From: a bacterium
GTDB taxonomy: Bacteria > Patescibacteria > JAEDAM01 > Absconditabacterales > Absconditicoccaceae
Direction: 5' to 3'
Length of the DNA stretch: 26,324 nt
Assembly (NCBI GenBank): GCA_017442645.1
Contig: JAFRZH010000021.1
Location: forward strand, 1-26,324
Part shown: positions 228 through 26,172 of the stretch, piece after piece
How positions within the stretch are numbered: position 1 is the stretch's first letter
How the letters are laid out: each line of letters opens with the position of its first letter
The notes under the pieces: generated by a model
Seen by the model: the letters and a program-made list of their open reading frames with translations, nothing else
Database searches by the model: none
Told to the model about the DNA's origin: nothing
Program-made: the position numbers and the translations under genes

Positions 228-1175
228 TTATTTTAGTTTTTTATGAAGGCGGTGAACATAACGATATCAAATTGTCATACTTAAAATCAAAAAAGTACAA
301 AGTTCAATTCCTAGGAGAATCGCAACATTAATTCGATGTTCTAGAAGATAAGGAATTAAGGTAAGAGTAAAGACTTGAGACATATAATAGTCAAAAACTC
401 GAAAAGATCCTCATGTAAAAATAAGAGAAATCAAAAATCCAATAATTAGGGAAAAGAGAATCGTCCAAATGAAAGGTTGAATAATCTGAGAAGAACTCGC
501 TCAAAGAAGCTTTTTAACTTGAATATCTTTTTTAAAAGTATTGAAGAGTCCTTTAAGAAAGAAAATAACAAAAGAGAGAATAACTCGCATAACGACTCCG
601 ATAAAAATCCAACAGAGAATTTGTACAAAATTAGAAAGTTTTATAATATTGAGAATTCTATTTTCTTGGCTTGAAAGATTCTTGAGTTGTGAAATGTCTT
701 GAATATTGAGAATAATAGATTTATTATCAATCATAATTTTTTGTAAGACTTCATACTGGTCTTTATCTTTGAGGGTAACATATAATGTGGCTGGAAGAGG
801 ATTCTTAATTCAAAATTTTTCAAAAGTACCAGTCAGATTTGGTAATCTTTTTTCCAAAAATTTCACAGAATCTTCTTTACTTGAAAAAGTGGCTTTTATA
901 TCAGCTTGTTCAAGTTGTTCTTTTAAAGTCATAACTTGTTTATAAATATAGTCTTCTTCTTCTGGTTTATCTTTGATATAAAAATACATTCCTAATTTAT
1001 TTTTCAATCCTTCATTGAGAGAATTTCCATAAAAAGAAACTCCCATTAAGATATGAAGGAGAAATAAAAGGAATCCACTTAAAATGGTTACTCGAACAAT
1101 TTGTCATTTGTAGGCTTTAAAGAGAGAAGATAAATCATCTCGAAATATTTTAGGAGAAGAAACTTTAGTTTTCAT
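228..1175 (-). CDS. ftsX: Cell division ABC transporter permease FtsX
   Basis: A 315-residue protein with the FtsX layout. A short cytoplasmic N-terminus leads to one membrane helix (about residues 25-47), then an extracytoplasmic domain containing LEKRLPNLTGTFEKFG and NPLPATLYVTLKD, and then three C-terminal helices. The segment VKKLLGASSSQIIQPF corresponds to the conserved cytoplasmic loop of FtsX (usually L-x-GAs-x-x-x-I-x-x-PF). Several glycines are TGA, including the one in LLGAS, which splits the gene under the standard code. FtsX pairs with the ATPase FtsE and transmits ATP hydrolysis to periplasmic peptidoglycan hydrolases at division. ftsE is not in this window; the gene just upstream (29 bp) encodes a TPR protein. 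The ATG start follows the TPR stop closely, which suggests co-transcription. Confidence 0.9.
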
Positions 1176-1204
1176 TTGATAAATCAGATATGAAATAAAG
1201 ATTT

Positions 1205-1846
1205 TTACTTGGAAAGTAATTTTTTCTTTTGAGATTTATTTTTTATTTTATTTTCAATGGCTTTTACAAAAAGTGCAATTTTTCTATCATACCACTTCAA
1301 TTCCTTATCAACAAGAATTAAATGATCATGATGTTCATAAAAATAATCAATCATTTTATTAGCATTATCATAATCACTTTCTAGCATATAGAGTTGAATG
1401 AGATTGTAAATAACTTCAGCATCTTGATTATTGATTTTAAAAGATTTTTTTAACCATTCTACTCCCTTTTCCCTATTTCCATATCGGTATTCACAAAGTC
1501 CATAACATCTTATAATTTCATGATTTTCTCCATTTGTAAGATCTAAAGCTTGTTTTAAACTTTTTTTTGCAACTTCTCGGTTATTTTTTTCCATTTCTAG
1601 AATTCCCTTAATATAGAGTGTAAGGGGATCATCTTTTTTCTTTGCATTCAAAAAAGTTACAGCTTTATCTGCTTTTTCTATTTCTCATTTTTGATATTGT
1701 AGGTCAGCTATTTGTAATAATGCATCTTCATTATTAGGATCTCTTGATAAAATACCATTCACAAGTTTTATTGCATCATCATAATTCCCTTCTTTTTTTA
1801 AATTCTCTATCTCTTGTAAAACTTGAGGGGGGATTCCTATAGTCAT
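1205..1846 (-). CDS. TPR-repeat protein
   Basis: A 213-residue protein made of tandem 34-residue-like helical repeats. Examples are EIENLKKEGNYDDAIKLV near the N-terminus, DALLQIADLQYQKGEIEKA, and further pairs such as YGLCEYRYGNREKGVEWL and VIYNLIQLYMLESDYDNA. The Gly/Ala/Tyr spacing is typical of tetratricopeptide repeats, which act as protein-protein scaffolds. No signal peptide or membrane helix is visible, so it is probably cytoplasmic. One glycine (in YQKGEIE) is TGA, so a standard-code call would wrongly start at residue 66 (MNAKKKDD). The ATG at 1846 was chosen because the TPR pattern starts immediately after it. It lies 29 bp upstream of ftsX on the same strand; whether it works with FtsX is inference. 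Confidence 0.8.
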
Positions 1847-2048
1847 AAGTATTTGTTCTATAAAATAAAAGTATTTTTATCTCTTATATTGTAGAGATTT
1901 TTTTTAAAAAAAGCAATAAAAAATCTGACCGTCTTTGTATTCATCTTTACTTTTTTAAATTTTATTTTAGATTTACGTTAAAACTTATTCTTGAAATAAA
2001 ATATAAATCCTTATAGTAAAATTATCTTTTTATTCTTTTACTTACTCT

Positions 2049-3764
2049 ATGAAAAGACTTGCGAAATTTTTTGCGGGATGGATTGAATCTTTAAGTATTT
2101 TTCCGCTTGGATATGCTTGTATTATTGCTTTTACGCTTTTTAGTATTGGTGATATTGCGGATTGGTTTAATGTGGAAGATGAAATATGGATTTCAACAGG
2201 ACTCGCTTTGATTCTTTGAATTTTTGGATCGTTACGATATCTCTATGGAGGAGAAAAGGGGACTCAAAAAACTAAGAAATTCTTGTGGATGACTCAGATT
2301 TTTTCTCTTTTTCTTAGTATAGGATACTATTTTCTAGGTATTGCAAGAGCTGATTTATATGCAGAGCATTTGTTGTTCTTTGGGATTTTTCCCGTTGCTA
2401 TCGTTGGAATCTTCTTTTTCATCGTGATGACTTTTAGAAAAAAAGAAACAAAAATCTGGCTGATCGTGAGAGAAATCATCGAATCCTTGTCCCTTGGGGG
2501 ATTGGCAGGTCTGATCGTTCGAGGAGGATTGTCTTGAGCTTTGGCTTCCATAGAAGCGTTATTTGATTTGAATTTCATCAATTGGCATCGATATGAATAT
2601 TTCGCTTCCTTTAGTTTAATTTTCTTAGCGTGATCGTTTGTGCTTACGTATTTCCTCCAACTTTATAAGCAAAACGAAGAAATCATTGAATCTTCTCGTT
2701 TGAGAAAAATTTTTGGATGTTATATTGTTTTGCCTCTTCTTTTGATTTATTTCGCGATTTTCTTTGCATATGGATTGAAAATTCTCATTACGGGGACGTG
2801 GCCAAAAGGTTTGATCGTTTGGTTGGGAATAAGTTATTTTGTTTTTGGAATGGTAACCTATTATCTGACTTATGCAGAAGAAACGCCTTTTTACAAGAAA
2901 ATGCATCAACTCATCTTTTCAAGTTTCCTTTTCATTGCTTTGATGATGGCAGGAGCGATTGGACTTAGGATTTCTCAGTATGGAATTACTTTTCATAGAT
3001 ATTTCATTTGTGCCTTTATTTTGGTGATGATTGCATTCTCCCTTTTAGCACTTCTTCGTCCAAAACAAAGATTTTTCTTCTTTGGAACGCTCTTTTTCGG
3101 AGCGACGGTTCTTAGTTTTTATGGACCTCTGAATGTGACTCAGGTTTCTTTCTTTTCTCAAAAACAAAGAGTGGTTCATTTAGCAGAAACATATGGCTTA
3201 AACTTACCTTTTGAAAGAAATAGTTGAAAAAATCTGACAGAAACAGAAGTAAAAGAGCTTCGTGGAGCGATTGCAGGAGTTGTGGAAGATTTTGCATATG
3301 AAAAATGGGAAGATTTCCTTTTGATAGGATTCACAACGGAATGGGAAGATCTTGACGAAGTTTCTCGTTGGGGAGTAAGTAATAAAATTTTTGAATTTCT
3401 CGGATTCCCTGAAAATAAGGACCGAAAATATCAAGGGAAAGAGTATTTTTATTTTGGGCAAGGACATATGAATGATGTTCCTCTCAAAGTTCAAGGGTTC
3501 TCTTATCTTTATTATCTTGATGATTTGCAAGAAAGTACGACACAGAAAAATGTTTTTCAACTTTCATCTTATTTTGAGAGTTTAAAAGGGAAAACTATTG
3601 ATTTAAATCCTTATCTTGAAATTTTGAGTACCGATAAAAATGCGCATTCTTTCTTGATCGAAGACGGAGAAAATAGACTTATTCTCACTAGAGTGAATGG
3701 AACTGTTGCACCTGATGGAGAGATAGAGATTGATTATGTGAATGGATATTATTTAGAGAAGTAA
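2049..3764 (+). CDS. DUF4153-family polytopic membrane protein
   Basis: A 571-residue protein with roughly ten hydrophobic helices in the first 390 residues, then a soluble acidic C-terminal region of about 180 residues. The stretch CYIVLPLLLIYFAIFFAY, followed by KILITGTWPKGLIVWLG, matches the conserved core of DUF4153 membrane proteins (PLL-x-Y … Y-x-x-KI … WPKG). The function of that family is unknown. Four in-frame TGA codons (near 2218, 2534, 2630 and 3226) break it under the standard code and are read as glycine here. It starts at the first ATG after a divergent intergenic region shared with the TPR gene, and a hairpin terminator follows. An AAAAAATCTGAC repeat word lies inside the coding region at 3227. 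Confidence 0.75.
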
Positions 3765-3773
3765 AAAGAAAAA

Positions 3774-3818
3774 TCCCCTCGGCTTCGCCGTATCACCTTG
3801 CAAAAGGGGAAAAATTTT
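3774..3818 (+). terminator. Terminator after the DUF4153 gene
   Basis: Outer stem TCCCCT/AGGGGA enclosing a CGGC-TTC-GCCG hairpin, then A- and T-rich sequence. It starts 10 bp after the stop codon. The CGGCTTCGCCG core also resembles the GC-rich intergenic repeats seen elsewhere in the window. Confidence 0.55.
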
Positions 3819-3822
3819 TGAT

Positions 3823-3945
3823 ATCTTTTAAGATGTTTTGCTTCGCTCAACATGACAGACATACACAAAAAGAAATAAAAATCTGACTGGAAAATGTCCC
3901 TCTTTTAAAAGAGGGGGGACCGCTTGCGGTGGGAGATTTTTTTAT
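3823..3945. repeat. GC-rich palindromic intergenic repeats
   Basis: A cluster of short palindromes in AT-rich DNA: a GCTTCGC hairpin (about 3840-3848), an AAAAATCTGAC word at 3877-3887, CCCTCTTTT/AAAAGAGGG (about 3899-3916), and CCGCTTGCGG followed by GGGAGATTTTTTT (3920-3943). The last 24 bp recur identically at 15947-15970. Related modules lie at 15765-16113, 16545-16801 and 19254-19452. Confidence 0.7.
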
Positions 3946-3950
3946 TTTCG

Positions 3951-3989
3951 AAAAAAGGTAAAAAGCCCAACAAAATATGCCGAGCTTTT
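3951..3989 (-). terminator. Terminator of the small gene at 4018-4242
   Basis: On the minus strand an 8-bp stem (AAAAGCTC/GGGCTTTT, one G-U pair) is followed by a T-rich run. It lies about 28 bp after the stop codon. Confidence 0.65.
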
Positions 3990-4353: not shown

Positions 4354-4459
4354 GAGAATTTTTACTTTTTTATAAACTAGGATGTTCCTTTGAAAATCAG
4401 ACTTCTTAACTATTTTTTCTAAAAAATATAGCACCTAAATAAAAAAAGTGATAAAAAAC

Positions 4460-6496: not shown

Positions 6497-6596
6497 TTAA
6501 TAAAAAAAGAAAAAGTCTGACAAAAAAAGAGGATGATCTACCTCTCTTTTAAGCAAAAGTCTTTTCAAAAATCGTTGATGGTATAGTTTGTTCTTT

Positions 6597-7859
6597 TTAA
6601 TTATCTTCAAAGTTTATGTATTGGTTAAAAAAAACGTTTACAACTTGATCTACATTATATGTTTCGTATTCAGATTTTTTGAGAATCTTGATGGCAAGCT
6701 TTAATATTTCCTTTTGTGTTTGTTTATCTGTAGATTCCCATGCTTCGGTCAATTGTAATTTGTGATAAATAGAAAGTAAATCTTCTTTTTGATTAGGTGA
6801 AAGTGTCGATATTTCCTCCTGAGTAATTCAATATTTACAGTATATGATTTCGTAAGAAATATTGTATTCTCAGAGGAAATAGTTTAAAAATTGATCTATG
6901 GTATCATTTTGATGTTGTGGATCTTGTAAATCTTCAATTGCAAAATTCATTAAATCTTTTTTATCCTCTGTGGATAAAGTATCCCACTTCTTTGTCTCTT
7001 TTAATGTTCGATATATTAGATCAATTGCTACCTTTTCGGGGAAATTACTACAAAGTTCTCCCCTTCTTCGACTTTCAATTTCTTTAGTTTTGTTTCTATA
7101 TCATTTGTGATTTTTTTTGTCATTTATATAGTGTATATCGTCTTGATGGTATGTATTAGCTTTTTGAGAATATATGTCTCATGGTTTATTTTTTGGATAT
7201 TTTGTTCAAGCTAAAATATCAGAATATAATTGGGTATAATGTCTTATACCTTCTTCTTTATATTGCTTGAGCTTTATATCTCTTTCTTCAGGAGAAGTAA
7301 TTCCTTCTTTTTCTATAATTTGTTGTGCTTCATTTTGAGAATATATTTCAACTCCATGCTCTGTTAGAAGTTGTTCTTTAAATTGTAAAAAGTGATTTAA
7401 TTCATGAAATACTGTTTCTATAATATCGGTATTGTGAGCAATATTAATTGTTACTTCTCTTTCTCGTTCCCAAAAAGATCACGATTCTTCTATTGTTGGT
7501 TCATTGATAGGATTTATTTTTACATTATCAATGTGCATTTCTTTACAAGCTAATTCAAATATCTTTCTTGCATATGTTTCTTTATCTCAATTAACATAAT
7601 ATTCTGTTTGCATTTCCAAAATTTTGTATTTATTTCTTGCTATTAAATTTTCAAATGCCTTATCAGTTTCAGCGAAAAATTTATTTGGAGCTCTGAATTC
7701 TCATCCGGGGATATCAATTTTTTTGTTATTAGTGGGATTTTTTGAAATCCAATTTTGTAATGCTGCTTGTAATTTCATTCTTATTCCCTTTCTTTTTGGG
7801 AAATTTTTTTCATCTGGAGTAGAAGGAGGGGACAGAGGATTAGTGAGGACTGTTATCAT
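6597..7859 (-). CDS. HExxH (zincin-like) putative metallopeptidase, invisible under the standard code
   Basis: With TGA as glycine, a continuous 420-residue frame runs from ATG 7859 to TAA 6597. Eight in-frame TGAs break it up, so the standard code shows only a fragment at its 5' end. Residues 152-156 read HELNH in the context TVFHELNHFLQFKEQLL: the HExxH zinc-binding and catalytic motif of zincin metallopeptidases, in a helix. Downstream, about residue 258, TKEIESRRRGELC could supply a glutamate third ligand as in gluzincins; this is inference. The C-terminal third is helical and charged (LSTEDKKDLMNFAIEDL, LSPNQKEDLLSIYHKL). No signal peptide is visible, so it is probably cytoplasmic. I know no exact family. 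An open extension to a TTG at 7922 is rejected because that TTG is the -35 box of an excellent promoter. Confidence 0.75.
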
Positions 7860-8600: not shown

Positions 8601-8648
8601 GAAATATAGACTAAAAATCTGATTTATTTTGTATGTTAGAAGAAAATC

Positions 8649-11600
8649 ATGTTAGGACGATTAACAAGTTTATTAGGAGGAGATTACAATCAAAAACAAT
8701 TGAAAAAAATCGATCCCATCGTAAGAGATATTAATGATTGGTATGAAAAATTTGAAACTTTAACAGATGAAGAGATTAAAAATAAGACTCCTGAATTTAA
8801 GGAGAGATACCAAAATGGAGAATCCCTTGATGATTTACTTCCAGAAGCTTTTGCAGTAGTAAAACAAGCCTGTAAAAGAATGTGCGGACAAACTTTTGAA
8901 GTAAATGGAAATCCTCAGGTTTGGAATATGATTCCGTATGATGTTCAGCTTATCGGAGGGATTATCCTTCATCAAGGGAAAATCGCCGAGATGAAGACAG
9001 GAGAAGGAAAAACTCTTGTAGCAGCTGCTCCAGTTTATCTCAATGCTCTTAGTGGAAAAGGAGTTCATGTGGTAACGGTAAATGATTACCTTGCTTCTCG
9101 TGATGCTCAGTGGATTGGAAATTTGTATCAATGGTTAGGACTTAGTATTGGAAATGTAGTGAAAGGAACTCCACTCGCGAGAAGGAGAGAAGAATACGGA
9201 AAGGATATCACGTATGTAGAAAATTCAGAATTATGATTTGATTACTTAAGAGATAATTTGGTAAAAAATATGGAAAGTAGGAGTGTGATTTGGAGACCAC
9301 TCAATTTTGCGATTATCGATGAAATTGATAGTATTTTGATCGATGAAGCAAGAACTCCATTGATTATTTCTGAAGGAAGAGAAGAACCTACAGAAAAATA
9401 CGTGTATTATTCCAATATTGTGAAAAGTCTCCAACCTTGTAGTGGAAAAAAGAAAGTATCTAAAGGACTTCTCAATGAATTGGTAAATGATGACGATAAA
9501 GAACAGGAAGAAGATGGAGATTATTATATTGATGAAAAAACAAAAACTGCTTCTTTAAGTGGAAAAGGAATTGCAAAACTTGAAAATATGCTCAATGTTG
9601 AGAATATTTATAAAGATTTAGGATTTGAAGAGATTCATCATATTGAAAATGCTTTGAAAGCAAAAGCAGTATATCAGAGAGATATTGATTATATTGTGAG
9701 TGGAAATGAAGTTTTGATCGTGGATGAACATACTGGAAGAACGATGCCCGGAAGAAGATTTAGTGAAGGACTTCATCAAGCAATTGAGGCGAAAGAAGGA
9801 GTCCCTATCCAGAGAGAATCTCAGACGATGGCAACGATTACCTACCAGAATTTTTTCAAACAGTATCAAAAACTTGCCGGAATGACAGGAACTGCCGCAA
9901 CGGAAGGGGAGGAATTCAATAAAATTTATGATTTAGAAGTGGTAATCGTTCCAACCAATAAAACCGTGATTAGAGTAGATATGAATGATAAAGTCTATTA
10001 TGATCAAGCAACGAAGTGGAAATTTGTGAGAAATTATATCAAATTTTATCATGAGATAGGAGAACCTCTTTTGATCGGAACTGCTGATATTGCGACTTCT
10101 GAATATGTTAGCCGTCTTTTGGAGAAAGATGCGATTACTCACTATGTTCTCAATGCAAAATTCCACGAACAAGAGGCAAATATTGTGGCAAATGCAGGAA
10201 GATATGGTTCTGTAGTGGTTGCAACGAATATGGCGTGAAGGGGAACGGACATCAAACTTGAAGACGGACTCAATGAAAAACTTGCAAATAATTATGCGAC
10301 TTGGTTACAGAAATTTTTCTCTAAAGAACAAAAAGATTTAGAAGTCAGAATTTTTTCTGAGATGGAGTTCGATTTGACATTGAATGCAATACAAACGAAG
10401 TTCTCTCTTTCAGATGAGAGAATTGAAACTCTCAAAAACGGAAATACACTTTCTATCGATGGTCGAGATCGAACCCTCAAAATCAATAAGAAAAAAAGAT
10501 ATAGCAACTCAGACTTTTATGCTCTTTTTACTTTTACCAATCCAGAAAAAGAAAAAAAATCTGACGACGACTGTGAATCAAGAGATTTTCATTATGGACT
10601 CTTTATTCTCGGAACCGAAAAACATGAATCCAGAAGAATTGATAATCAGTTAAGAGGTCGTGCCGGAAGACAAGGAGATCCTGGAGTTTCTGTATTTTTC
10701 GTGGCTTTGGATGATCTTTTGATGAGAAAAATGGGAGGAGAGAGAATTAAAGCACTCGCAGGAATGCTTTTAAGTAAAGAGGAACTTGAAAATCTTGAAC
10801 TCACTCAAAAACAATTTACGAAAACGATTACCAGAGCTCAGAAAGAGATTGAAGCCTATAACTTCAGTATCAGAAAACATCTTTTTGATTATGATTCTGT
10901 GATCAATAAACAAAGACTTAATATCTATCATACGAGAGATTCTTTGATTGAAGCGGATTTAGATGAAGAGAAAAAGAAAGAATGGCTTGAGGATTATAAA
11001 AGACAATTCCTTGTCGATGCTCAAGAAGTTTTAGCAGGACAAATGCAAGCAGCTGAAACTACAGAACAACCTATTTCTGATCTTCTTGAAGTACTCAATA
11101 AAGAACTTGGACTGGAAATTACTCCAGCTCAAAAGGAAGAGTTCGAAAAACAAGATCTCAAGACTCTTCATGAAAATTTGGAAAGAAGATTGGTAGAATA
11201 TTTCCAAGAAATGTTTGAAACGATCAATGATAATCTGCTTTTCAATCTCTTTAGAGATATTCATCTTCATATTATCGATAAACTTCGAGTTAATCATATG
11301 GATGAAATGCAGGCTCTCAAAGATAAGGTAGGATTTATGGGATATGCACAAATTGATCCTCTTATCATGTACAAAAAGGAATCATTTGAAAAATTCCAGG
11401 AATTACTTGAAAGAATAAAATCTGAAACAACAACGATGTTGATGAGAATTGACTTTAAATCTCTTGAAGAACAACAGCAACAACAAATTCAAATCATTGA
11501 AGCTCAGAAAAATGCAAAAGAGATCATGAGTAAACTCAAAAATGCAAGTAATTCAGCAAAAAATGTTAAAACTTCTCCATCTCTCAATGAACAAAGAATG

Positions 11601-11890: not shown

Positions 11891-13262
11891 ACAACAAACG
11901 AATCTTCCCAAATCTTGAACAAGGTCAAGCTCCACATTGATTTCTGAAAGAAAGCTTATAATACTTCGTTTTATCTCTTGATTCAAAGAATCGATAAGTA
12001 TTGTATTTTTCTTCTTCATACTTCGATTCTCCTACGATACAAGCAATAGTCCCTTCTTCAGCATCTTTTTGAGTGGTATAAATAAGAACTCCTTCAGGAC
12101 TTTCCACTAAATCTTGTAGGAAATAATTTTCCGTACCCACCGTACATCCCTCAGTTAAATGTTTTTTCTCGATGAGGAGTTTTAAATCTTCCTCAGTTTT
12201 TTTATCAAAGACTTGGAGATATTCGTATTCATTCCTTGAATTCTCGCCATAAGGAGCAAAATACGAAATTCTCGTTCCCTTTCTTTCCAAGTCAGATTTT
12301 TCTTCTTTTTCTAAAAAAGCATTAAATCCTTTCGAAGTCTCAACTTCAACTCCTAAATCTTCATATTTGGAAGTATACACATATCCAGAGTAAAATTCGA
12401 TTCCGTACTGTTTTGGAGCACAAGCAAAAGAGATAAAAGTCTGAGGATCCTGAGAAAGCGGCTCTTGAACATTGTTTTTCATCGTTTCCAAACATTTCTC
12501 TTCCTCCTCGGCAAGATAGCGATCCCAGAAAAGAGGATAAGCATCAATAACCTCTTGGGTGATATCGAAAATACAGTCAAAATCGAATGATTTCCATTGT
12601 CCTCCCTCTTGAAAGGAGAGAAGTCAAGGAACTTTATAAAACGGTCCTACATTCTTCACGAGTCCCCATGCAAATTGTTTCCCTGGAATATCGTAAAATT
12701 CAAGAGGAATGGTATTTTGACATTGCCGTAAAAAAGCTTCAATCTCATGAACATCTGCTCCAAAAAAAGCATTTTTATTATATTCTTCATCTCCAAAATC
12801 TCCACATCCTTCAAATTTCTGATTTCCTTGATAGGTAAGATTTACGGTATATTCATGTAAATCTCCTTTCCCACCATCGACGCAGGATCTTTTCTCAAAA
12901 CTTCCTTCAAGTTCGGTATTGAAAAAGAAGTAATTCTCTTTATCGATTTTCATCGTAATGGGAAAGGTTTTCTTATTTTCATATTCCTCCATACTTGTTT
13001 CAAAAAATACTGCTTCATCTCCAGAAATCGTTAAATCCCAGAAAGGTTCCATTCCGAATGCAGAGAGGAACAGTGTGTCAGATGCTTCTTTATCGTCCTT
13101 ACTCTTTGATTCTTGTTGTATCATATTTCCAGAAATTACCGTTTCCTGGCTGCAAGTTCCAGAAAGGCTACAGGTATTTCCATCTTCAGAAGGTTGCTCA
13201 TCACATCAGAAAAGGCTTATCGTTCCTATCACCAAAAAGAGGAAAAGTCAGAATTTTTTCAT
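11889..13262 (-). CDS. Lipoprotein with COG3650-like domain
   Basis: A 457-residue predicted lipoprotein. The signal peptide MKKFGLFLFLVIGTISLFGC ends in a lipobox (LFG-Cys20) whose glycine is TGA, so the export signal cannot be recognised under the standard code. After a Ser/Gly/Glu-rich linker, FLSAFGMEPFWDLTISGDEAVF resembles the G-x-EPFW motif of a domain common in small bacterial envelope proteins (COG3650-like). The C-terminal half (about residues 250-457) is Tyr- and Glu-rich with several cysteines (CTVGTENYFLQDLV, IACIVGE, RNQCGAGPCSRFGK) and is unrecognised. It is probably anchored to the outer face of the membrane. It lies downstream of murI on the same strand but has its own promoter. 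Two strings that look like separate genes under the standard code are one protein. Confidence 0.8.
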
Positions 13263-13363: not shown

Positions 13364-14185
13364 CTATTCCATTTTCTCCGCATCAATCTCTTCTCCCAAA
13401 AAAAGAGAAGCCGAACTGACAAATTTCTCCTCTGAATCCGTAGTAAAATACTGGATTCAGCTTTTTTTTGAACATTGAAGATCCATTTCTCCATGACGAA
13501 ATAAATAATCTTCCAAACTCTCAGCAACAATCTCTCCTTGAGAAATAACCTGAATTTTCTCTCAAACAACCTCCTGAATCTGATCTTGAATCAAAGGATA
13601 ATGCGTACAACCAAGAATAATCGTATCAATTTCCCCATCTTTCTCCAAAAGTTTTCCCACATATTTTTCGATAAAATACCTTGCTCCAGGAGTAGCATAT
13701 TCATTATTTTCAATAAGGGGCACCCAAAGCGGACAAGCTACCGCATTGACTACAATATCAGGATAAAAATGAGAGATTTCAATATCATAAGCACGAGATT
13801 TGACGGTTCATTCCGTCGCTAAAATCCCGATATGACGAGACTTCGTAATCAATCCAATTTTTTCCACCGTTGGACGAATCACTCCCAAAACTCTTCTATC
13901 AGGATATTCCAAAGGAAGCTTTTTCTGCTGAATCTCGCGTAAAGCTCTTGCAGAAGCGGTATTACAAGCAAGAATCACTAAAGAACAACCTTTATGAAAA
14001 AGTTTTTCCACATTTTCCCAAGTATACTGAAAAATCGTCTCAAATGAACGCGAACCATAAGGAGCACGAGCATTATCTCACAAATAAAGATAATCATATT
14101 GAGGTAAACGGCGACGAATCTCTTTCAAAACCGTTAACCCTCCATATCCTGAATCAAAAACTCAAATGGGTCCCATTATTGTCAT
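13364..14185 (-). CDS. murI: Glutamate racemase MurI
   Basis: A 273-residue glutamate racemase, which makes D-glutamate for peptidoglycan in the cytoplasm. The N-terminus reads GPIGVFDSGYGGLTVLKEI, then YLGDNARAPYGSRS. The two catalytic cysteines lie in ILACNTASA (about Cys74) and ILGCTHYPLI (about Cys193), with the usual acid motifs around them. At least four glycines are TGA, including those in PIGVFD and YLGDN, so only internal pieces show under the standard code. The start is ATG 14185, or ATG 14176 three codons on, with a TATAAT-containing region upstream. Its presence implies that the cell makes at least part of its own murein precursors. The lipoprotein gene follows after about 100 bp. 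Confidence 0.93.
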
Positions 14186-14758: not shown

Positions 14759-14801
14759 TGGTTGCTCTTTCGGTGGCTTTTACTTCTTAAAATGAAGAAA
14801 A

Positions 14802-15197
14802 ATGAAAAGAAGAAGAGCAACACATCCTTGAGTGTATCTTTGAAGGGAACTTGAAGCAAGAGAACGAAGTCAAAAGAATTTTGCTGATATTATTGGAATT
14901 TCTGCTCCTGCATTAAATGCGATTATCAAAGGAGAAAAAAATCTAACTCCTGCTTTATGTGTTCGTATTTGAGTAGCATTTGGGACAAGTCCAGAGTTTT
15001 GGATGAAGATTCAAACTCGTTATAATTTAGAAAAAGCAAAAATTAAAGAAGAAAACAGAATCGAAAAAGTCTTTGAAAAAGTAAAAAAATATTGATATGA
15101 ATTATTAACTTATGAAGATGAAGATTATGAAGTAGAAGAACAAGAAGAAAAACAATCAATCTCAAAAGAAAAAATTCATGAACCTGTATGTGCATAA
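14802..15197 (+). CDS. higA: HigA-like antitoxin (XRE helix-turn-helix)
   Basis: A 131-residue protein starting MKRRRATHPGVYLGRELEARE. The HPG-x-x-L opening, the helix-turn-helix SQKNFADIIGISAPALNAIIKGEKNLTP and the following VRIGVAFGTSPEFWMKIQ with RYNL are diagnostic of the HigA/VapI antitoxin family. These proteins bind the toxin and repress the operon. A charged tail of about 50 residues follows (YEDEDYEVEEQEEKQ) that is longer than in typical HigA. Four glycines are TGA, in HPGVYLG, RIGVAFG and KKYGYE. The frame stays open upstream, but ATG 14802 puts the family motif at the usual distance. It is cotranscribed with the toxin and ends at a hairpin terminator. Confidence 0.88.
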
Positions 15198-15719: not shown

Positions 15720-16115
15720 GATTAAGTTTACTAAATAAAGGAGGACAAGGATTCTAATCAATATTGTTCCCCTTTTTTGAAAGGGGACACGGCGAAGCCG
15801 AGGGAATTTTCATTTTTTTTCACTTTCCCAATTCATTCGTAGGGACACCATTCTTGGTGTCCTTTTGTCATTATATCAAAAAGGACGGGAAGAATCCCGT
15901 CCCTACAGAGATTATTGAATCTCTCCCATCACTTCATAATTAGGGGCCGCTTGCGGTGGGAGATTTTTTTCTTTTTGAAAGATTTTTTTTTAAATCCTCC
16001 GGCTCTTCGAGCCACCTCCTTTAAAAAGGAGGACAACAACTCTCATTGATAAGAAACAGCTTATCAGACATCCCCCTCCTTGCTAAGGAAGGTTTAGGGG
16101 AGGTTCCTTTTACAC
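15720..16115. other. Intergenic stretch with palindromic repeats, no gene seen
   Basis: No convincing coding frame. The stretch holds several GC-rich palindromic modules: TTCCCC…GGGGACACGGCGAAGCCG (about 15769-15800), the element at 15838-15906, the CCGCTTGCGGTGGGAGATTTTTTT word at 15947-15970 (identical to 3920-3943), GGCTCTTCGAGCC with CCTCCTTTAAAAAGGAGG (about 16001-16033), and a CCCCTCCTTGCTAAGG…GGGGAGG module (about 16071-16105). Confidence 0.6.
15838..15906. repeat. MITE-like palindromic element (TIR GTAGGGAC…GTCCCTAC)
   Basis: The ends are inverted: GTAGGGACACCATTCTT on the left, and the reverse complement of the right end is GTAGGGACGGGATTCTT. Each half is itself a perfect hairpin (GGACACC/GGTGTCC at 15843-15862 and GGACGGGA/TCCCGTCC at about 15882-15901). 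There is no coding capacity. It resembles short non-autonomous palindromic elements. Confidence 0.6.
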
Positions 16116-16514: not shown

Positions 16515-16544
16515 GTCTTTTTTCTGAACTTTTTTTATCATAAA

Positions 16545-16801
16545 AAGGGGAGAGCAAACCTCCCCCAGCCCCTCTTTTTCAAGAGGGGAGTTATGATGGG
16601 TATTTTTCTTCTCCTTGAGAAGTGGACCGAAGAATGGATGAGGTCTTAAAAATGTTCCCCCTTGAGAAAGGAAACACGGTGAAGCCGATGGGATTTCTAT
16701 TCTTGTAGATAGAACCTCCCCCAGCCCCTCCTTAATAAGGAGGGGAGTTTTTAAAATAGATTTCCCTCTCCTATTTTAGGAGAGGGATAGGGTGAGGTTC
16801 A
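16545..16801. repeat. Three-module GC-rich repeat array, copy 1
   Basis: Modules in order: A, AACCTCCCCCAGCCCCTC with TTTTTCAAGAGGGG; B, CCCTTGAGAAAGG…CGGTGAAGCCG; C, a double hairpin from AACCTCCCCCAGCCCC (16713) to TAGGGTGAGGTT (16799). Module ends are inverted (AACCTC…GAGGTT). The same A-B-C order recurs at 19254-19452. Confidence 0.75.
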
Positions 16802-16812: not shown

Positions 16813-17877
16813 CTATTCAATAATCCCACTTCCCAAACAAATCTCTCCATCATAAGCCACAAACACTTGCCCTGGAGTCACAGCCCATTGCGGTTCCTCA
16901 AAATCCACTTTCACTTTATCTTCCTCAAACTCCGTTAAACGACACGCAACCGGAGGATTCTGGCGATACCTGATTTTCCCTGTCAGACTTTTCTCTTTTT
17001 TTTCTTTTGCACTCTCAAAAATCCAATGCCAATTCCTCGCGATCAAACTTCTCGTCTGCAATTGTTCCGCATCTTTGTCTGTCACATACACAAGATTTTT
17101 CTCGATATCGATACGATAAATATACGCCTTAAAATTCAGACTCAAACCGTGTCTTTGCCCAATCGTGTAAAAATACGCCCCCTCATGCGTCCCAACTTTC
17201 TTGGTCGCTCATGTCTCAGGATTCAAATACAAAATATCCCCATTTTTCTGCGGAAATCTCTGTTTCAAAAACTCCCTAATCGGCACATTCCCGATAAAAC
17301 AAAGTCCTTGACTATCTTTTCTCTCCGCATTGGGAAGATTAAACTTTTTCGCTAATGCTCTCACCTCCGTTTTTTCATACACTCAAACAGGGAAAAAAGA
17401 TTTAGAAAGCTGATTCTGATCGAGTCCCGCTAAAAAATACGATTGATCCTTGATCCTGTCGATTCCACGAAGAAGATGAAATTCTCCCTTTTCTTCCTCA
17501 ATCCTCGCATAATGCCCCGTCGCAATCCCGTCAAATCCTTCTTCCAACGCTTTCTTCATAAAGACATCAAATTTGATCAGACTATTACACAAAACATCAG
17601 GATTCGGAGTAATTCCCTTTTCATATCCTGCAAAAATGTAATCAATAATCTTTTCTTTGTATTCCTGCTGTAAATCATAGGAACGAATCTCGATTCAGAG
17701 GTGTTTTGCAACTTTGATCGCTTCTTGTGCATCTTTGTACGTTGTGCAATTCCCTTTTTCAGAAACATAATTTTTCATAAATCCTCCCACAACTTCATAT
17801 CATTGCTCCAAAAGGAGAGCAGCAGAAACTGCACTATCGACTCATCAACTTAATCAAACGAGAATTTTTTTGGACAT
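16813..17877 (-). CDS. mnmA: tRNA-specific 2-thiouridylase MnmA
   Basis: A 354-residue enzyme that thiolates U34 of Lys, Glu and Gln tRNAs, using ATP and a persulfide relay in the cytoplasm. The N-terminal PP-loop reads KILVGLSGGVDSAV, in which three of the four conserved glycines are TGA, two of them adjacent (TGA TGA). The catalytic cysteines fit the family: Cys97 in [15 protein letters not shown] and Cys193 in [41 protein letters not shown] and the C-terminal beta-barrel ([18 protein letters not shown]) complete it. At least seven glycines are TGA. The start may be ATG 17877 or the adjacent ATG 17880. It is monocistronic and lies between two copies of a repeat array. Confidence 0.95.
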
Positions 17878-18735: not shown

Positions 18736-19164
18736 TTAAATATTTAAAGATTGAAAGATTTCTGGATATTTAGATAAAGCAACTTGTAAAATATGTTCGT
18801 CTTCTTTATAAGATAAGGTTTGTTCAAGATCTTCTAAGGGAATTAAGACACTCGCATCAACATCTTCAGCTAATTTTTCTTTTGTCTCATCTTTTACTGT
18901 CATTAAAAAGTAATGAACCTCGCAATCATAACGAACATCTTTTTCTTCAAAAGAATAAGAAATCTGATCAAGATATCCATGAATTGTCCCAATAATTCCT
19001 GTTTCTTCAAAGATCTCCCTTAATGCAGTTTGTTCAAAAGTTTCTCATTCTTCAACACTTCCTTTGGGGAAAGAGTAATCATTAAATCTCTTTCTATAAA
19101 CAACATAAGCACCATTTTGTGAAAGAACAAGAGCTCATGCTTTCAGTTTTTTGATACTTTTCAT
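18736..19164 (-). CDS. Nudix hydrolase
   Basis: A 142-residue protein. The Nudix box, GSVEEGETFEQTALREIFEE plus TGI (residues 35-57), fits G-x5-E-x7-REUxEExGU completely, with Gly40 encoded by TGA. It hydrolyses a nucleoside diphosphate linked to another moiety; the substrate cannot be told from sequence. The N-terminus (KAGALVLSQNGAYVVYRKR) is the usual first strand pair, which suggests a small single-domain MutT/Ap4A-type enzyme. ATG 19164 is preceded by a TTGATT-17-TACAAT promoter. The DUF3800 gene follows after 15 bp. Confidence 0.92.
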
Positions 19165-19227: not shown

Positions 19228-19253
19228 GGGAAGGTTTAGAAAAAATTGTTTAT

Positions 19254-19452
19254 CAAATCTCCCCCCAACCCTCTTTTTCAAGAGGGGGAGTTCTATTTAC
19301 TATTTTTCCCCTTGAGAAAGGGGGATGTCCGAAGGACAGGGGGATTTGTCTTCTTGTGATAAAAACCTCCCCTAGCCCCTCCTTACTAAGGCGGGGAATT
19401 TTTTATATTCATTTCCCTCTCCTATATTAGGAGAGGGGTAGGGGTGAGGTTC
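19254..19452. repeat. Three-module GC-rich repeat array, copy 2
   Basis: The same A-B-C order and orientation as 16545-16801: CCCTCTTTTTCAAGAGGGGG; CCCTTGAGAAAGGGGGATGTCCGAAGGACAGGGGG as two short blocks; and the double hairpin from AACCTCCCCTAGCCCC (19364) to GGGGTGAGGTT (19451). Hairpin loops and stems vary between copies, with compensating changes (GGAGAGGGGTAGGGG against GGAGAGGGATAGGG). Confidence 0.75.
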
Positions 19453-21083: not shown

Positions 21084-22721
21084 CTATTCCAATCCAGAAA
21101 TCACTCCCTCCTCATCGATTTCAATTTTCATAGCTGCTGGCTCTTTAGGAAGTCCTGGCATCGTAACGATACTTCCCGCTAACGCAACGATAAATCCTGC
21201 TCCACTATAAAGTTTCACCTCTCTAATAGGGAAAACATACTCTTTCGGAGCTCAAAGAAGTTTTTTATCATGACTAAGGGAATTTTGCGTTTTAGCAATA
21301 CAAACAGGAAATTTTCCATATCCAAGAGCTGTAAAATGTGCAAGTTGTTGTTTTGCATCATCAGAAAACTGTACTTCTTTTGCACGATACATCTCAGTTG
21401 CAATGGTTTCTATTTTTTGAGAAAGAGGGAGGTATAAATTATAAAGAGGAGAAAAATCTGACTCTTTTTTTTCGATCGATTCACAAACCTCACGAGCTAA
21501 ATCAAGAGCTCCGTTTCCTCCTTTTTCTCGACATTCCGTAAGAATTGCTTTTACTCCCATTTCAGCACATAAGGTTTGAAGTTTCTCGAGCTCTCTCGAA
21601 GTATCGGTCATAAATTTATTGATCGCAACGAGAGGATGCATTCAGAATTTTTTACTATTTTCTAGATGAACTCTCAAATTTTCAAATCCTTTTTCAAGTG
21701 CTTCAACATTTTCTTCTCCAAGATGTTCTTTTTCAATACCTCCATGCATTTTGAGAGCACGAACCGTTGCCACAATCACACAAGCCTCAGGCTTCAGACC
21801 GTTCAATTGACATTTGATATCAAAAAACTTCTCCGCCCCAAGATCAGCACCAAATCCTGCTTCTGTAACGACATAATCTCAAGTTGCAAGTGCAGAAATG
21901 GTCGCATTGATCGAATTACAACCATGAGCGATATTCGCAAAAGGTCCCCCATGGACAAAAGCAGGAGTTTTTTCCAAAGTTTGTACGAGATTAGGCTTAA
22001 TCGCATCTTTGAGCAAGGTTACGACAGCTCAAGTGCAGTTCAACATTCAGAATTTTATTGCTTTTTTTTTAAAATTTTCCCCAATCGTAATATTATCAAT
22101 TCTCTCCTTCAATTCTTCCAAAGTCTTCGAAAGACAAACAATCGCCATCATTTCTGATGCAGCTGTAATACAAAATTTTCCCCTCAAAGCACGGTCATTC
22201 ATATCCAAACAACGCGTTCGTGTAACCGTTTCCGGATCAATTCCAAGCTCATTTCCTTGATAAATGTGGTTATCAATCACCGCCGCAATCAAATTATTTG
22301 CACTGGTAATCGCGTGAAGATCCCCCGTAAAATGCAAATTAATATCCTCCATAGGCGTAATTTGTGCATATCATCCTCCACAAGCTCCTCCTTTTATCCC
22401 AAAACATGGTCCAAGAGAAGGCTCACGAAGTGCTAAAACGGATCTCTTCCCGATTTTTCTTAGCCCATCAGCAAGTCCAATGGAAAGCGTCGTTTTCCCC
22501 TCTCCTGCAGAAGTTGGAGTAATCGCCGTTACCAAAATAAGCTTCCCTTGTTTATGTTCTTCGCAGACTTGATGTTGCCATTCATAGAGCTTTGAAAGAG
22601 AAATTTTCGCTTTATCATTTCCATAAAGTTCATAATCATTTTCTTGTAATCAAAGTTCTTCTGCTATTTCTTTGATAGGAGTTTTTGAGTGTTGTTGATT
22701 GATTTCGATATCACTAAGCAT
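21084..22721 (-). CDS. fhs: Formate-tetrahydrofolate ligase
   Basis: A 545-residue enzyme, near the family's usual 555. It makes 10-formyl-THF from formate, THF and ATP, supplying one-carbon units in the cytoplasm. The P-loop is [11 protein letters not shown] (residues 68-78; usually TPTPAGEGKTT). [72 protein letters not shown] and [20 protein letters not shown] are all strongly conserved. Seven glycines are TGA, including one in GGACGGGY. A complete enzyme in what looks like a reduced genome suggests formate assimilation or salvage. It follows the GT2 gene by 70 bp, with a possible internal promoter, and precedes the hydrolase by 29 bp. Confidence 0.95.
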
Positions 22722-22791
22722 AGAGGGAAGAAAAAAGAGTAAAAGTCTGATTAGTCTGTTTATAGGGAGTTAGGAGAGAAAAGCAAACTGA

Positions 22792-23730: not shown

Positions 23731-23751
23731 GAGAATTTTTGAATATAAAAC

Positions 23752-24729
23752 TTAAATTTTCATTTCTTTTAAAACTTGTTGCATTTTAGTTATTTTTTTT
23801 TGGTAGGGGAATACGATATTTTCTACTCCCATATAAGAACTAATGAGAAATAAGTGTAATCTTGTGTTGATAATTCTTTCTGCTCATCAGATTAAAGTAA
23901 AAAAATCTTCAAGATTATTGGTTCGATCGTATCTTTCGAGAGTAGGGAAATCTTCTTTTAAGACCTCAAAATATCTTTCATCATTATCGGTTCGCCCCGT
24001 ACAAATAGGAGTATAAATAAGAGAATAGTCAGATTGATATTTTTTTATTTCCTTTTTTATATCATCTAAATATTGTAAGGCATTACTATTAATATTGATA
24101 AGTATGTATTTTTTTTCGGATAGGTGTTTGTATTTCTTCCAATTTTCTCTTACAAAATAACTTGTATCCATAAAAAATTCTACATTTTGAAATCAATATT
24201 TTTTTAATTCTGAAACTCCTTCCCAGTCCCTACAGTAAATGTTTTGAGTATGACGAAGAATTCAATTAAAAAGCCATTTGTTAATCGTCTTTTTAGGAAT
24301 TTGTACCCCTCACATGATATAAAGATTCTTTTTTAAGAAAAAACTAGGTCGAATGGACCATAACCAATAATAATATGCATGAGGAGATTCTTCCGTTAAG
24401 ATTTCTCATCCTCAGAGAATAATACTATCAATTTGAAAAAAAGGAGAAATCTGACTGAATTTATTTTTTTTAAGATACCTAAAAGTACTCCTAATTCCTC
24501 TAGGTAATTCATCGATAAAATGCAACGTAGAAATATCGATTTCCTGAGAGAGAAAGGTCTTTAATCGAGTATTGTCCTGAGAAATGATATAAATCTCTTT
24601 TTTTTGTTTTTGTAAAAGTTTTATATTTCACAATAAAATTAATTCATCTCAAAGATTTTTAAATCATCGAAATCCCACCAATAAAACTTTTTCTCCTTTT
24701 ATTTCAAATGTACCTGAATGCATGATCAT
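23752..24729 (-). CDS. Polysaccharide pyruvyl transferase family protein (CsaB-like)
   Basis: A 325-residue protein with the family's marks. The N-terminal glycine-rich loop is LLVGFRGFKNLGDELILLGN, then comes DSIILGGGEILTEE, a mid-protein YCRDWEGVSELKKYGFQNV, and the conserved Arg/His site GAERIINTRLHLFLISSYMG near the C-terminus. Family members add pyruvate ketals to cell-wall sugars (as CsaB does for S-layer anchoring) or belong to a related GT-B-like group. Around ten glycines are TGA, including two of the GGG and a TGA-TGA pair. The start is ATG 24729, or 24723 two codons on. It lies between the flippase and GT2 genes in the same operon. Confidence 0.82.
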
Positions 24730-24782
24730 TCAATATGAATAAAGTAATTTTACTTTAACAAAAGATAACGGAAAATCAACTA

Positions 24783-26072
24783 TTAAGCCAAAATTTGTTT
24801 CATATACTTTCTTGCAAAAAATCCATAGAGAACAAGCAATAATATTTCAGAAAGAAGCAAAATAAAACAAGATGCATAAATTCCATATTGGGGAACAAAA
24901 AGAAAATTCAATCCTAAAGCTAAAAGAGCTATAAAAATCTGAATATAAAGTCTTGTATACTCTTTAGATAATGCAGTAATAATATTTCAGAAAAGATAAC
25001 TTAAAGCTTTGATAGGTAAAATTCGTAGTAAGATCAATAAATAAGAATAAGAAGAAATAAACTCTCCATTTGTTCCATAAAAACTTAAAATCCATTTCCC
25101 TCCAAAGAAAAAGAAGAATACAAAAGGAATACTAATTCCCAAGTGGAGCAGTCAGGCTTTTTTTACTCTTGAAAGAAACTGAACTTTATCATTTCTTACT
25201 TCTACAAACTTTTTGAAAAAGGAAATAGCAACAACATTAAAAAGGAGATAAATATAGGTAATCAACTTATATGGAGTTGAAAAATACGCAACCGTAGTTT
25301 TATCAGTAAAATGTTCCAATAAAACAATATTCATATCTCCATAGAAATATGCAGAAATACTTCCTAAAAAGAAAGGAATACTTAGTTTTAGCGTTTCCTT
25401 AATAAAGGGAAGATCCCGTTCAAATTTTTTAAATTGAAAGTGCTTTTTTACATAAAAAAAGGAGAAAATAACCGTAACGATGCTTGAGGTTAAATATCAA
25501 AGAAAAATAGCAAAAAGGCTTTGTGATATACTTAGAAACAGAATCGTAAAAAGCACAAGAGACAATCCACTCAAAATTTTCAAAAAAGCCTCTTTTTCCA
25601 TTTTTTCTACAGGACGAAAAAAAACTCTGAGGAACTCCGCAAAATTCACTAAAATGGAATGGAAAAGAAAAAGAAATAATAAGGTCTCTGATTCATGAAT
25701 ACTTGCATGAAAATTCCCTAAAATTAAAATCAAAACCGTTACTAAAAGAGTTAATCAAAGTTTTATGATACTTCCATTCATAAAATATTTTTCAGATTTT
25801 TCTGGATGTTTACTAATCTCTCTAAAAATTAAATTTCCCAATCCAAAATCCACAATAGCAACAAAAAATGCACAAAAACTGATAATCCAATTAAATTCTC
25901 CCAATCAAGAATCCCCAAATTTCTGAGAGATCCAGATTCCTAAGAGAAACGTAAAAACTTTAGCAAAAAATTCAGAAAAAAGAAGCCAAAAACTATTTTT
26001 TAAAACGGTTTGCTTAAAAGAGGTATTTTGAAAAAAAAATGATGATAACTTAGAAAAAAAAGGGTACTTCAT
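24783..26072 (-). CDS. Wzx-type polysaccharide flippase (MOP superfamily)
   Basis: A 429-residue polytopic membrane protein with about 12 helices. The N-terminal NSFWLLFSEFFAKVFTFLLG is typical of Wzx/RfbX O-antigen flippases. A charged loop follows (DFGLGNLIFREISKHPEKSEKY), then the central FFLGSISAYFYGDMNIVLLE and LLRILPIKALSYLFGNIITALSKEY. It should move a lipid-linked oligosaccharide across the cytoplasmic membrane. Five glycines are TGA. It is the first gene of the five-gene operon, and its promoter probably lies in 26073-26135. With the GT2 and pyruvyl transferase-like genes it indicates surface glycan synthesis and export. Confidence 0.87.
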
Positions 26073-26135
26073 GAGATAAACGTTTAATTAATATACATTA
26101 TCATTGATAAGTATTCTCTCTAAAAATACAAATAG

Positions 26136-26172
26136 TTTTAAAAAATAAAAAAAGAGTCAAAATTCTGACTCT
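26136..26172 (-). terminator. Minus-strand terminator upstream of the flippase operon
   Basis: AGAGTCA (26153-26159) pairs with TGACTCT (26166-26172), and the minus strand then runs into TTTTTTTATTTTTT. It ends a transcript from beyond the window. The stem contains an AAAATTCTGAC copy of the recurring word. Confidence 0.75.

What the first reader, a model, noticed from the sequence alone, without database searches (positions are those of the whole stretch)
832..26169. Overrepresented 11-mer AAAA(A/G/T)TCTGAC: candidate DNA-uptake or other genome-wide signal
The core TCTGAC with an upstream A-run occurs at least 12 times in 26 kb on both strands. By base composition the extended word should occur less than about once. 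Copies lie inside conserved genes (ftsX, DUF4153, secA twice, lipoprotein, mnmA, fhs, pyruvyl transferase-like) and in leaders, after terminators and inside one terminator stem (26153-26172). Dispersal over both strands and tolerance inside genes is how uptake sequences (DUS/USS) behave in Neisseria and Pasteurellaceae, where they also form terminators. I know of no described uptake sequence in this lineage. A methylation or chi-like role is equally open.
Basis: partly seen in the sequence, partly recalled or inferred. Interest (0 to 1): 0.75.

Follow-up and report, generated by a model that had tools for sequence, protein, structure and literature searches.

The report
Candidate DNA-uptake signal in Absconditabacteria
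A short DNA word, AAAAA(T/G)CTGA, is scattered hundreds of times through the genomes of one group of tiny recoded bacteria and behaves like the "self" tag that a few other bacteria use to pick up DNA of their own kind.

Summary
AAAADTCTGAC occurs 11 times in the 26-kb window against 0.27 expected and 0.34 under a codon-aware null. The window is from an Absconditabacteria (SR1)-type genome in which TGA reads as glycine; its own genome is not held.

Relatives show a relaxed core, A(A/G)AAN(T/G)CTGA, with a second A-tract one helical turn upstream. In 8 of 288 sampled genomes of the class AAAAAKCTGA occurs 318-610 times; the next best has 192. Enrichment holds in all six reading frames and every intergenic arrangement. 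T-rich and G-rich forms differ between genomes.

All 8 genomes carry comEC, dprA, comEA-type and pilin genes. Their sister clade lacks comEC and dprA, and there the word is at background between genes (8 vs 6.0), with a mild coding excess.

Best explanation: an uptake signal working like the Neisseria DUS and Haemophilus USS. No such signal for this lineage appeared in the literature listings seen. Uptake was not measured, no receptor was found, and the consensus is looser than in DUS/USS.

The parts
211..220 (-). core copy AAAAGTCTGA, intergenic
   Evidence: pattern A[AG]AAN[TG]CTGA
1919..1928 (+). core copy AAAAATCTGA(C), between divergent genes
2294..2303 (-). core copy AAAAATCTGA in DUF4153 gene
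3228..3237 (+). core copy AAAAATCTGA(C) in DUF4153 gene
3877..3886 (+). core copy AAAAATCTGA(C), intergenic
4397..4406 (-). core copy AGAAGTCTGA, intergenic
6511..6520 (+). core copy AAAAGTCTGA(C), downstream of dnaK
6670..6679 (-). core copy AAAAATCTGA in 441-aa hypothetical gene
8613..8622 (+). core copy AAAAATCTGA in secA leader
10345..10354 (-). core copy AAAATTCTGA(C) in secA
10509..10518 (-). core copy AAAAGTCTGA in secA
10555..10564 (+). core copy AAAAATCTGA(C) in secA
12292..12301 (-). core copy AAAAATCTGA(C) in lipoprotein-like gene
12435..12444 (+). core copy AAAAGTCTGA in lipoprotein-like gene
13248..13257 (-). core copy AAAATTCTGA(C) at start of lipoprotein-like gene
13457..13466 (-). 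core copy AAAAAGCTGA (G form) in Asp/Glu racemase gene
16983..16992 (-). core copy AAAAGTCTGA(C) in mnmA
17404..17413 (+). core copy AGAAAGCTGA in mnmA
18958..18967 (+). core copy AGAAATCTGA in NUDIX gene
21452..21461 (+). core copy AAAAATCTGA(C) in fhs
21642..21651 (-). core copy AAAATTCTGA in fhs
22047..22056 (-). core copy AAAATTCTGA in fhs
22741..22750 (+). core copy AAAAGTCTGA upstream of fhs
24445..24454 (+). core copy AGAAATCTGA(C) in pyruvyl-transferase gene
24933..24942 (+). core copy AAAAATCTGA in polysaccharide-export gene
25621..25630 (+). core copy AAAACTCTGA in polysaccharide-export gene
25792..25801 (-). core copy AAAAATCTGA in polysaccharide-export gene
26159..26168 (+). core copy AAAATTCTGA(C) inside a hairpin that, on the minus strand, is followed by a T-run (terminator-like)

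Best explanation
The word is a DNA-uptake signal of one Absconditabacteria clade. A surface DNA receptor, probably a type IV pilin, would prefer double-stranded DNA carrying A(A/G)AAN(T/G)CTGA with an extra A-tract one helical turn upstream. The type IV pilus and ComEA would pull the DNA in, ComEC would pass one strand, and DprA/RecA would recombine it. Because tagged fragments enter more often, alleles with the tag spread by biased transformation, so copies build up on both strands wherever the gene product tolerates them. The TGA-to-glycine code lets the tag sit in the one frame that would otherwise be a stop. Shown here: enrichment, structure, forms that differ between genomes, competence genes in relatives, and background intergenic levels in the comEC/dprA-minus sister clade. 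Inferred: receptor binding, uptake bias, recombination.
For: (1) Abundance: AAAAAKCTGA 318-610 copies in 8 of 288 sampled genomes of the class; the highest of the other 280 is 192.
(2) Codon-aware enrichment over the 8 genomes plus window (summed): relaxed core 674 vs 176.9 coding and 222 vs 20.9 intergenic.
(3) All six frames enriched; 148 contexts in 257 coding copies; copies in divergent, convergent and co-directional gaps.
(4) Second A-tract at -11 to -6 (z 3.0-7.2 against other A5 tracts) and T at +11 (z 6.6); the spacing is one helical turn, as reported for USS segments (PMC1626085, passages).
(5) The fourth A and CTG tolerate little change, other positions do.
(6) Forms differ: G leads in G001, G003, G004; T in G002, G005, G006, G013; G045 is even.
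(7) In aligned DNA of close pairs the core is kept in 64 of 118 cases vs 72 of 226 for permuted words pooled.
(8) ComEC, DprA, HHH_3 (ComEA-type) and pilins in 8 of 8.
(9) Sister clade G007/G008/G026 lacks ComEC and DprA. Its intergenic relaxed core is 8 vs 6.0; in the three outgroup genomes placed in the tree it is 27 vs 7.4 (conditional P 0.006; T form 0 vs 1.0 against 12 vs 1.8, P 0.005).
Against: No uptake or binding was measured and no receptor was identified. The pilin found beside dprA in some genomes also has relatives in the competence-minus clade. Consensus is loose: AAAAATCTGA 204 copies vs 1027 singly mismatched ones, 486 of them expected. Exact-core density is one per 1.7-3.1 kb, below the near 1 per kb of DUS/USS. 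ComEC is not sufficient: 26 of the 41 ComEC-bearing genomes of the order lie outside the enriched groups (AAAAATCTGA 10-95 copies); three of them tested codon-aware gave relaxed ratios 1.1, 1.1 and 1.7. The competence-minus clade keeps a coding excess (65 vs 39.5), and its total relaxed count exceeds all 40 shuffles in G007 (27, highest shuffle 24) and G008 (23, highest 21); its overall ratios (1.5-1.7) equal that of competence-bearing G025 (1.7), so the contrast rests mainly on intergenic copies. The G form follows higher GC (0.341-0.376 against 0.295-0.304), so 'dialects' may partly be base composition. Some single control words were as conserved as the core (20 of 25, 22 of 33). The window's own competence genes were not seen.
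Confidence: 0.62

Rival explanations
1. A chromosome-organising or regulatory protein (nucleoid-associated or cell-cycle factor) binds the word genome-wide, and this protein happens to be missing or changed in the sister clade.
For: Phased A-tracts and tolerated positions fit a DNA-binding protein in general. Intergenic enrichment is stronger than coding. No uptake was measured.
Against: Most copies lie inside genes, in all six frames. No preference for promoters: of 104 intergenic copies 26 lie in divergent, 21 in convergent and 57 in co-directional gaps. Differing forms and decline alongside comEC/dprA are not predicted.
Confidence: 0.18
2. A Chi-like recombination signal read by a RecBCD/AddAB-type enzyme, or a KOPS-like polar signal.
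For: Short, non-palindromic, over-represented word. A PDDEXK_1 nuclease domain is present in 13 of 13 genomes tested.
Against: The nuclease domain is equally present in the sister clade where intergenic copies are at background. No consistent strand bias: 8 contigs or pieces give F/R 22/14, 29/22, 12/33, 20/26, 20/12, 7/5, 7/11, 9/14; correlation with GC skew between -0.22 and 0.48 on the 7 where it could be computed (G004:C3 is the one lopsided contig). Sense and antisense copies are both enriched over codon expectation, 185 vs 44 and 72 vs 12.4.
Confidence: 0.06
3. Target of an orphan or restriction-modification methyltransferase, enriched as HIP1 is in cyanobacteria.
For: Some orphan-methylase sites are over-represented (HIP1, PMC4390886, start of abstract in the listing).
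Against: Non-palindromic, with tolerated changes at several positions and a second A-tract. Methylation itself was not testable.
Confidence: 0.05
4. Codon usage, base composition or context-dependent mutation bias.
For: AT-rich genomes; one frame (sense 1: Lys-Ser/Ala-Asp/Glu) holds 32.2 of the 44 sense copies expected. The G form goes with higher GC.
Against: Pooled enrichment survives synonymous shuffling in every frame and is strongest in intergenic DNA. The permuted relaxed control (ctlrel) has ratios 0-1.9 over 20 sets, one of them (G005, 13 with highest shuffle 11) above its shuffles. Relatives of similar base content (G007, G008, G026) lack the intergenic signal.
Confidence: 0.05
5. Dispersed insertion element or terminator part.
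For: One window copy lies in a terminator-like hairpin.
Against: Flanks beyond about -12 and +13 carry little information (isolated z of about 3 at +34 and +35). Opposed neighbouring pairs closer than 40 bp are rare: at most 1 in each of 8 contigs or pieces.
Confidence: 0.03

Closest known systems
Neisseriaceae DNA uptake sequence (DUS) and its dialects
   Same: Hundreds of copies, both strands, coding and non-coding with non-coding preference, forms that differ between lineages, and a CTG core (CTG core of DUS: PMC3630211, passages). The T form shares TCTGA with the canonical DUS GCCGTCTGAA (as printed in PMC1626085, passages).
   Different: Upstream half is an A-tract, not GCCG; second A-tract one turn upstream; the A that all DUS dialects keep at +10 is variable here; looser consensus; opposed pairs are rare; unrelated phylum; TGA is a sense codon here; no ComP identified. 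A shared 3-5-mer can be coincidence.
Pasteurellaceae uptake signal sequence (USS)
   Same: Core plus AT-rich segments spaced about one helical turn (PMC1626085, passages), dispersal, subclade-specific variants.
   Different: Different core; the extra tract lies on the A side of the core; only one extra tract seen; lower density and looser consensus.
Saccharibacteria natural transformation (PMC10633639, passages)
   Same: Patescibacteria with ComEC-dependent natural transformation.
   Different: No uptake sequence in the passages seen; a different lineage of Patescibacteria.
Chi sites (recalled)
   Same: Short over-represented word tied to recombination.
   Different: No consistent polarity here; intergenic copies decline with comEC/dprA rather than with the nuclease.

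Membership tests
DUS/USS-type uptake sequence | Strong genome-wide over-representation of a 9-12-mer above codon-aware background | tested here: met
   Whole-genome counts; codon-aware on 26-143 kb per genome
DUS/USS-type uptake sequence | Both strands, coding and non-coding, with non-coding preference | tested here: met
   relaxed core 3.8x coding, 10.6x intergenic
DUS/USS-type uptake sequence | Shared by relatives, with lineage dialects | tested here: met
   the T/G difference also follows GC content, so the dialect part is weaker
DUS/USS-type uptake sequence | Natural-competence machinery in the bearer | tested here: met
   8 of 8 relatives have ComEC, DprA, HHH_3 and pilins; not testable in the window's own genome
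DUS/USS-type uptake sequence | Strong consensus: more perfect than singly mismatched copies | tested here: not met
   204 perfect AAAAATCTGA vs 1027 one-mismatch copies (165 of them the G form; 486 expected). One Neisseria genome also has more one-mismatch than perfect copies, 1372 vs 943 (PMC3630211, passage)
DUS/USS-type uptake sequence | Density near one copy per kb | tested here: not met
   Exact core one per 1.7-3.1 kb on 8 contigs or pieces; the relaxed core in the window is 28 in 26 kb, about one per kb
DUS/USS-type uptake sequence | Tagged DNA is preferentially bound and taken up | not testable with these tools
   Needs a competent culture
Neisseriaceae DUS | CTG core kept in all dialects | tested here: met
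   Changes in CTG give ratios 0.7-1.7 against 5.2-6.7 for the intact word, except T to A in the T form (2.5), whose reverse complement TCTGATTTTT contains TCTGA
Neisseriaceae DUS | A at +10 kept in all dialects | tested here: not met
   The base after CTGA is A in only 25-45% of AAAANKCTGA sites
Neisseriaceae DUS | ComP minor-pilin receptor | tested here: inconclusive
   Several pilin families found, none both specific to competence-plus genomes and basic; sampling partial
Chi site | Polarity along the replichore | tested here: inconclusive
   No consistent bias on 8 contigs or pieces; no closed genome of the clade

The most novel reading that the evidence does not exclude
Absconditabacteria evolved their own uptake-sequence system: a CTG-core tag with helically phased A-tracts, fixed by self-biased natural transformation. 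This would be the first such system, to my knowledge, outside the two proteobacterial families in which it is known. The TGA-to-glycine code frees the tag's TGA from being a stop. Competence in these epibionts would then serve exchange with kin rather than feeding on host DNA.
Probability: 0.52. Interest if true: 0.9.

Novelty: new variant of a known kind. Interest (0 to 1): 0.8.

Why it matters
A 2006 paper states that uptake sequences are not known outside Pasteurellaceae and Neisseriaceae (PMC1626085, passages). My eight searches (at most 20 papers listed each) listed no paper that by title or start of abstract describes one in Patescibacteria/CPR. An independent case in a deeply different, recoded, probably host-dependent lineage would be a rare natural replicate for the debate on how such tags arise: receptor bias plus drive, or selection for self-DNA. 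It bears on whether CPR competence serves nutrition, as proposed for Vampirococcus (PMC8080830, passages), or sex. It also gives a practical handle: adding the tag to DNA could help transform bacteria that have no genetics. The comEC/dprA-minus sister clade makes the idea testable by comparison alone.

Tried and rejected
Codon or dipeptide artefact: rejected by synonymous shuffling and six-frame counts. Terminator function: one hairpin case in the window, but opposed pairs are rare. Other dialects in more distant genomes: the top words in the far group (GCTCCTAAAAA, GTTGCTAAAAA) look like codons of a KAPKK-type repeat protein near secA (reading by eye, not tested). No dominant word was found in G009, G012, G015, G016 or G046 with 63-123 kb each; G012, G014, G015, G046 and G047 show the T form moderately. 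Receptor: the pilin beside dprA in G001, G002, G005, G012, G015 and G045 looked promising, but it is not beside dprA in G003, G004 or G013 and has relatives in the competence-minus clade. Clustering of 61 pilin-like ORFs from 40 fetched pieces gave one 3-member family seen only in the 8-genome group, but it is acidic and the sampling was partial. RecB-like nuclease as a Chi reader: present in 13 of 13 genomes tested.

Weak points: gene calls are crude (the racemase and pyruvyl-transferase genes of the window were missed), so some 'intergenic' DNA holds genes. The codon-aware counts use 26-143 kb per genome, not whole genomes. The 288 genomes are a sample of a larger class. The A-enrichment upstream is not only at -11 to -6: positions -3 and -2 also show z of about 5. 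The conservation counts count each conserved site from both sides, pair related genomes with each other, and include some overlapping loci (for example L006 with L051-L052, L002 with L035-L036), so they are not independent; single control words range from 0 to 20 of 25 kept. G045 is in the 8-genome group by word counts alone (not in the SecA tree); G046 and G047 are not in the tree either, and G012, G014, G015 are not one clade there. L018 was taken as G026 and L013 as G022 because the contig lengths agree. DprA was also not found in G048, which has moderate word counts. The sister-clade comparison was chosen after seeing the data. An earlier count said the sister-clade counts are all within the shuffle maximum; that is wrong for the relaxed core in G007 and G008. 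On rechecking I lowered the main confidence from 0.66 to 0.62 and the novel case from 0.55 to 0.52 for this, for the GC link of the forms and for the well-conserved control words; the rival of a chromosomal binding protein went from 0.16 to 0.18 and that of codon or mutation bias from 0.04 to 0.05.
Full report
What the window is. Pfam finds FtsX, DUF4153, DnaK, SecA, MnmA, formate-THF ligase and surface-polysaccharide genes. Most of these long reading frames are open only if TGA is sense. The DnaK motif reads DL-TGA-GGTFDVT (sequence), which fits TGA as glycine, the code of Absconditabacteria/Gracilibacteria. A SecA-based scan returned 30 loci at up to 70% identity. Of the 30 record titles 9 say SR1 or Absconditabacteria(les), 2 Gracilibacteria, 3 Patescibacteria group, 14 name no phylum, and 2 look mislabelled. 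In a SecA tree the window groups with G001 (96/93), then with G003 and G004, then with G002, G005, G006 and G013 (100/99). The window's own genome is not held, so genome-wide work was done on relatives.

The word is real and not a codon effect. In the window AAAADTCTGAC occurs 11 times against 0.27 expected. With synonymous shuffles in genes and dinucleotide shuffles between genes it is 7 vs 0.27 coding and 4 vs 0.07 intergenic. Over about 0.85 Mb of the 8 relatives plus the window, AAAAAKCTGA has 257 coding copies in 148 different peptide contexts. All six frames are enriched: sense 61, 80 and 44 vs 5.3, 32.2 and 6.5; antisense 29, 12 and 31 vs 6.9, 0.8 and 4.7. The 44 copies in sense frame 2 put TGA in frame. 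They would be stops in the standard code.

What the signal is. De novo word counts gave AAAAATCTGA among the top words in G002, G013 and the window, and AAAAAGCTGA in G001 and G004. Substitution scoring against the codon-aware null shows that the fourth A and CTG tolerate little change (one exception, T to A in the T form, 2.5-fold), while positions 2, 5, 6 and 10 tolerate more. Flank profiles show a second A-rich tract at -11 to -6, one helical turn upstream of the core A-tract (z 3.0-7.2 against other A5 tracts), further A at -3 and -2, and T at +11 (z 6.6); beyond that only isolated values near z 3. The window favours T (23 of 24) and a following C (11 of 24); the 8 relatives have C at 6-27%.

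Where it occurs. Whole-genome counts over 49 genomes of the order and 288 sampled from the class (the 8 and several others are in both) single out G001, G002, G003, G004, G005, G006, G013 and G045 with 318-610 copies. The best of the other 280 is G015 with 192, then G025 with 147 and G240 with 141. AAAAATCTGA and AAAAAGCTGA counts are 207 and 403 in G001, but 292 and 121 in G005. This looks like dialects, though the G-rich genomes are also the GC-richer ones. Codon-aware ratios for the relaxed core are 3.4-6.8 in the 8 genomes and 5.3 in the window, 1.9-2.6 in G012, G014, G015, G046 and G047, 1.7 in G025, and 1.1 in G009 and G016.

Link to competence. PF03772 (ComEC) is found in 41 of 49 genomes, including all 8. 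Among 25 genomes tested, DprA matches in 20 (19 over the cut-off; 8 of the 8), HHH_3 in 22 (8 of the 8) and pilins in 24 (8 of the 8). The sister clade of the 8-genome group in the SecA tree is G007+G008+G026 (100/100). All three show no ComEC, by profile and by a ComEC protein query from G002, and no DprA. There the intergenic relaxed core is 8 vs 6.0 and AAAAATCTGA 0 vs 1.0. In the three more distant ComEC-bearing genomes placed in the tree (G012, G014, G015) it is 27 vs 7.4 and 12 vs 1.8; conditional tests give P 0.006 and 0.005, and with G046 and G047 added 0.015 and 0.003. A coding excess remains in the sister clade (65 vs 39.5), and total relaxed counts there (ratio 1.5-1.7 each) exceed all 40 shuffles in G007 and G008. 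This could be decay, or background that the null misses; G025, which has ComEC and DprA, has the same ratio. Against a simple rule: 26 of 41 ComEC-bearing genomes of the order lie outside the enriched groups, so ComEC is needed on this reading but not sufficient.

Conservation. In aligned DNA of close pairs (about 80-84% identity) the exact core is kept in 64 of 118 cases against 72 of 226 for permuted words pooled. The relaxed core is kept in 184 of 315 against 148 of 614. In distant pairs it is 36 of 162 against 24 of 229 and 160 of 455 against 76 of 773. Single control words vary widely (0 to 20 of 25) and cases are not independent, so this is supporting evidence only.

Mechanism. The best-supported account is an uptake tag kept by biased transformation. 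Rivals (chromosomal binding protein, Chi, methylase site, mutation bias, dispersed element) are weighed above. Against Chi: no consistent strand polarity, and a RecB-like nuclease domain equally present where intergenic copies are at background. The receptor is unknown: a pilin gene lies beside dprA in several genomes, but the competence-minus clade has relatives of it.

Comparison with known systems. It works like DUS/USS. All DUS dialects keep CTG at +6 to +8 and A at +10 (PMC3630211, passages); here CTG is kept but the base in the place of +10 varies. USS has AT segments spaced about one turn (PMC1626085, passages), as here. A short shared core can be chance. Two usual features of the class are not met: the strong consensus (204 perfect vs 1027 singly mismatched copies) and near 1 per kb density of the exact core. 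I therefore do not file it as a DUS or USS, but as a new variant of the same kind. Eight literature searches (at most 20 papers listed each) listed no paper that by title or start of abstract describes an uptake sequence in Patescibacteria. One search (Patescibacteria with 'uptake sequence') found 0 papers; (candidate phyla radiation with 'uptake sequence') found 1, a review on gene transfer in metagenomes (PMC6777429, listing only). Papers on Vampirococcus, Saccharibacteria, groundwater Gracilibacteria and the phylum (PMC8080830, PMC10633639, PMC11452946, PMC13293708; passages only) mention ComEC and/or pili-based DNA uptake, but no uptake sequence in the passages seen.

Noticed in passing
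window 14399-15197 (+): A HigB-like toxin gene (PF05015, E 1.2e-4, below its cut-off) overlapping an HTH_3 protein frame: a probable HigBA-type toxin-antitoxin pair.
   Followed up: partly
window 16542-16792, 19241-19443, 3763-3953, 15775-15980: Intergenic repeats: a 103-nt pair at 83% identity, CCTCCCCCAGCCCCTC-type units, and a GGCTTCGCCG-type inverted pair; they look like small dispersed palindromic elements.
   Followed up: no
L171, L172, L175, L179, L180 (dprA regions): A type IV pilin gene of about 200 aa lies next to dprA in several Absconditabacteria genomes; not so in G003, G004, G013.
   Followed up: partly
L001 and L009: Public records titled Candidatus Peribacteria and Fermentimonas sp. 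carry Absconditabacteria-type SecA 69-70% identical to the window's, so the titles or bins are probably wrong (L001 also placed in the tree).
   Followed up: partly
genomes G007, G008, G026: A clade that keeps ComEA-type HHH_3 and pilins but shows no comEC and no dprA: apparent loss of transformation.
   Followed up: yes
L010, L012, L013, L017: Words such as GCTCCTAAAAA and GTTGCTAAAAA recur near secA and look, by eye, like a Lys/Ala/Pro repeat protein (KAPKK type).
   Followed up: no
window 10345-10564: Three tag copies within 220 bp inside secA, both orientations.
   Followed up: no
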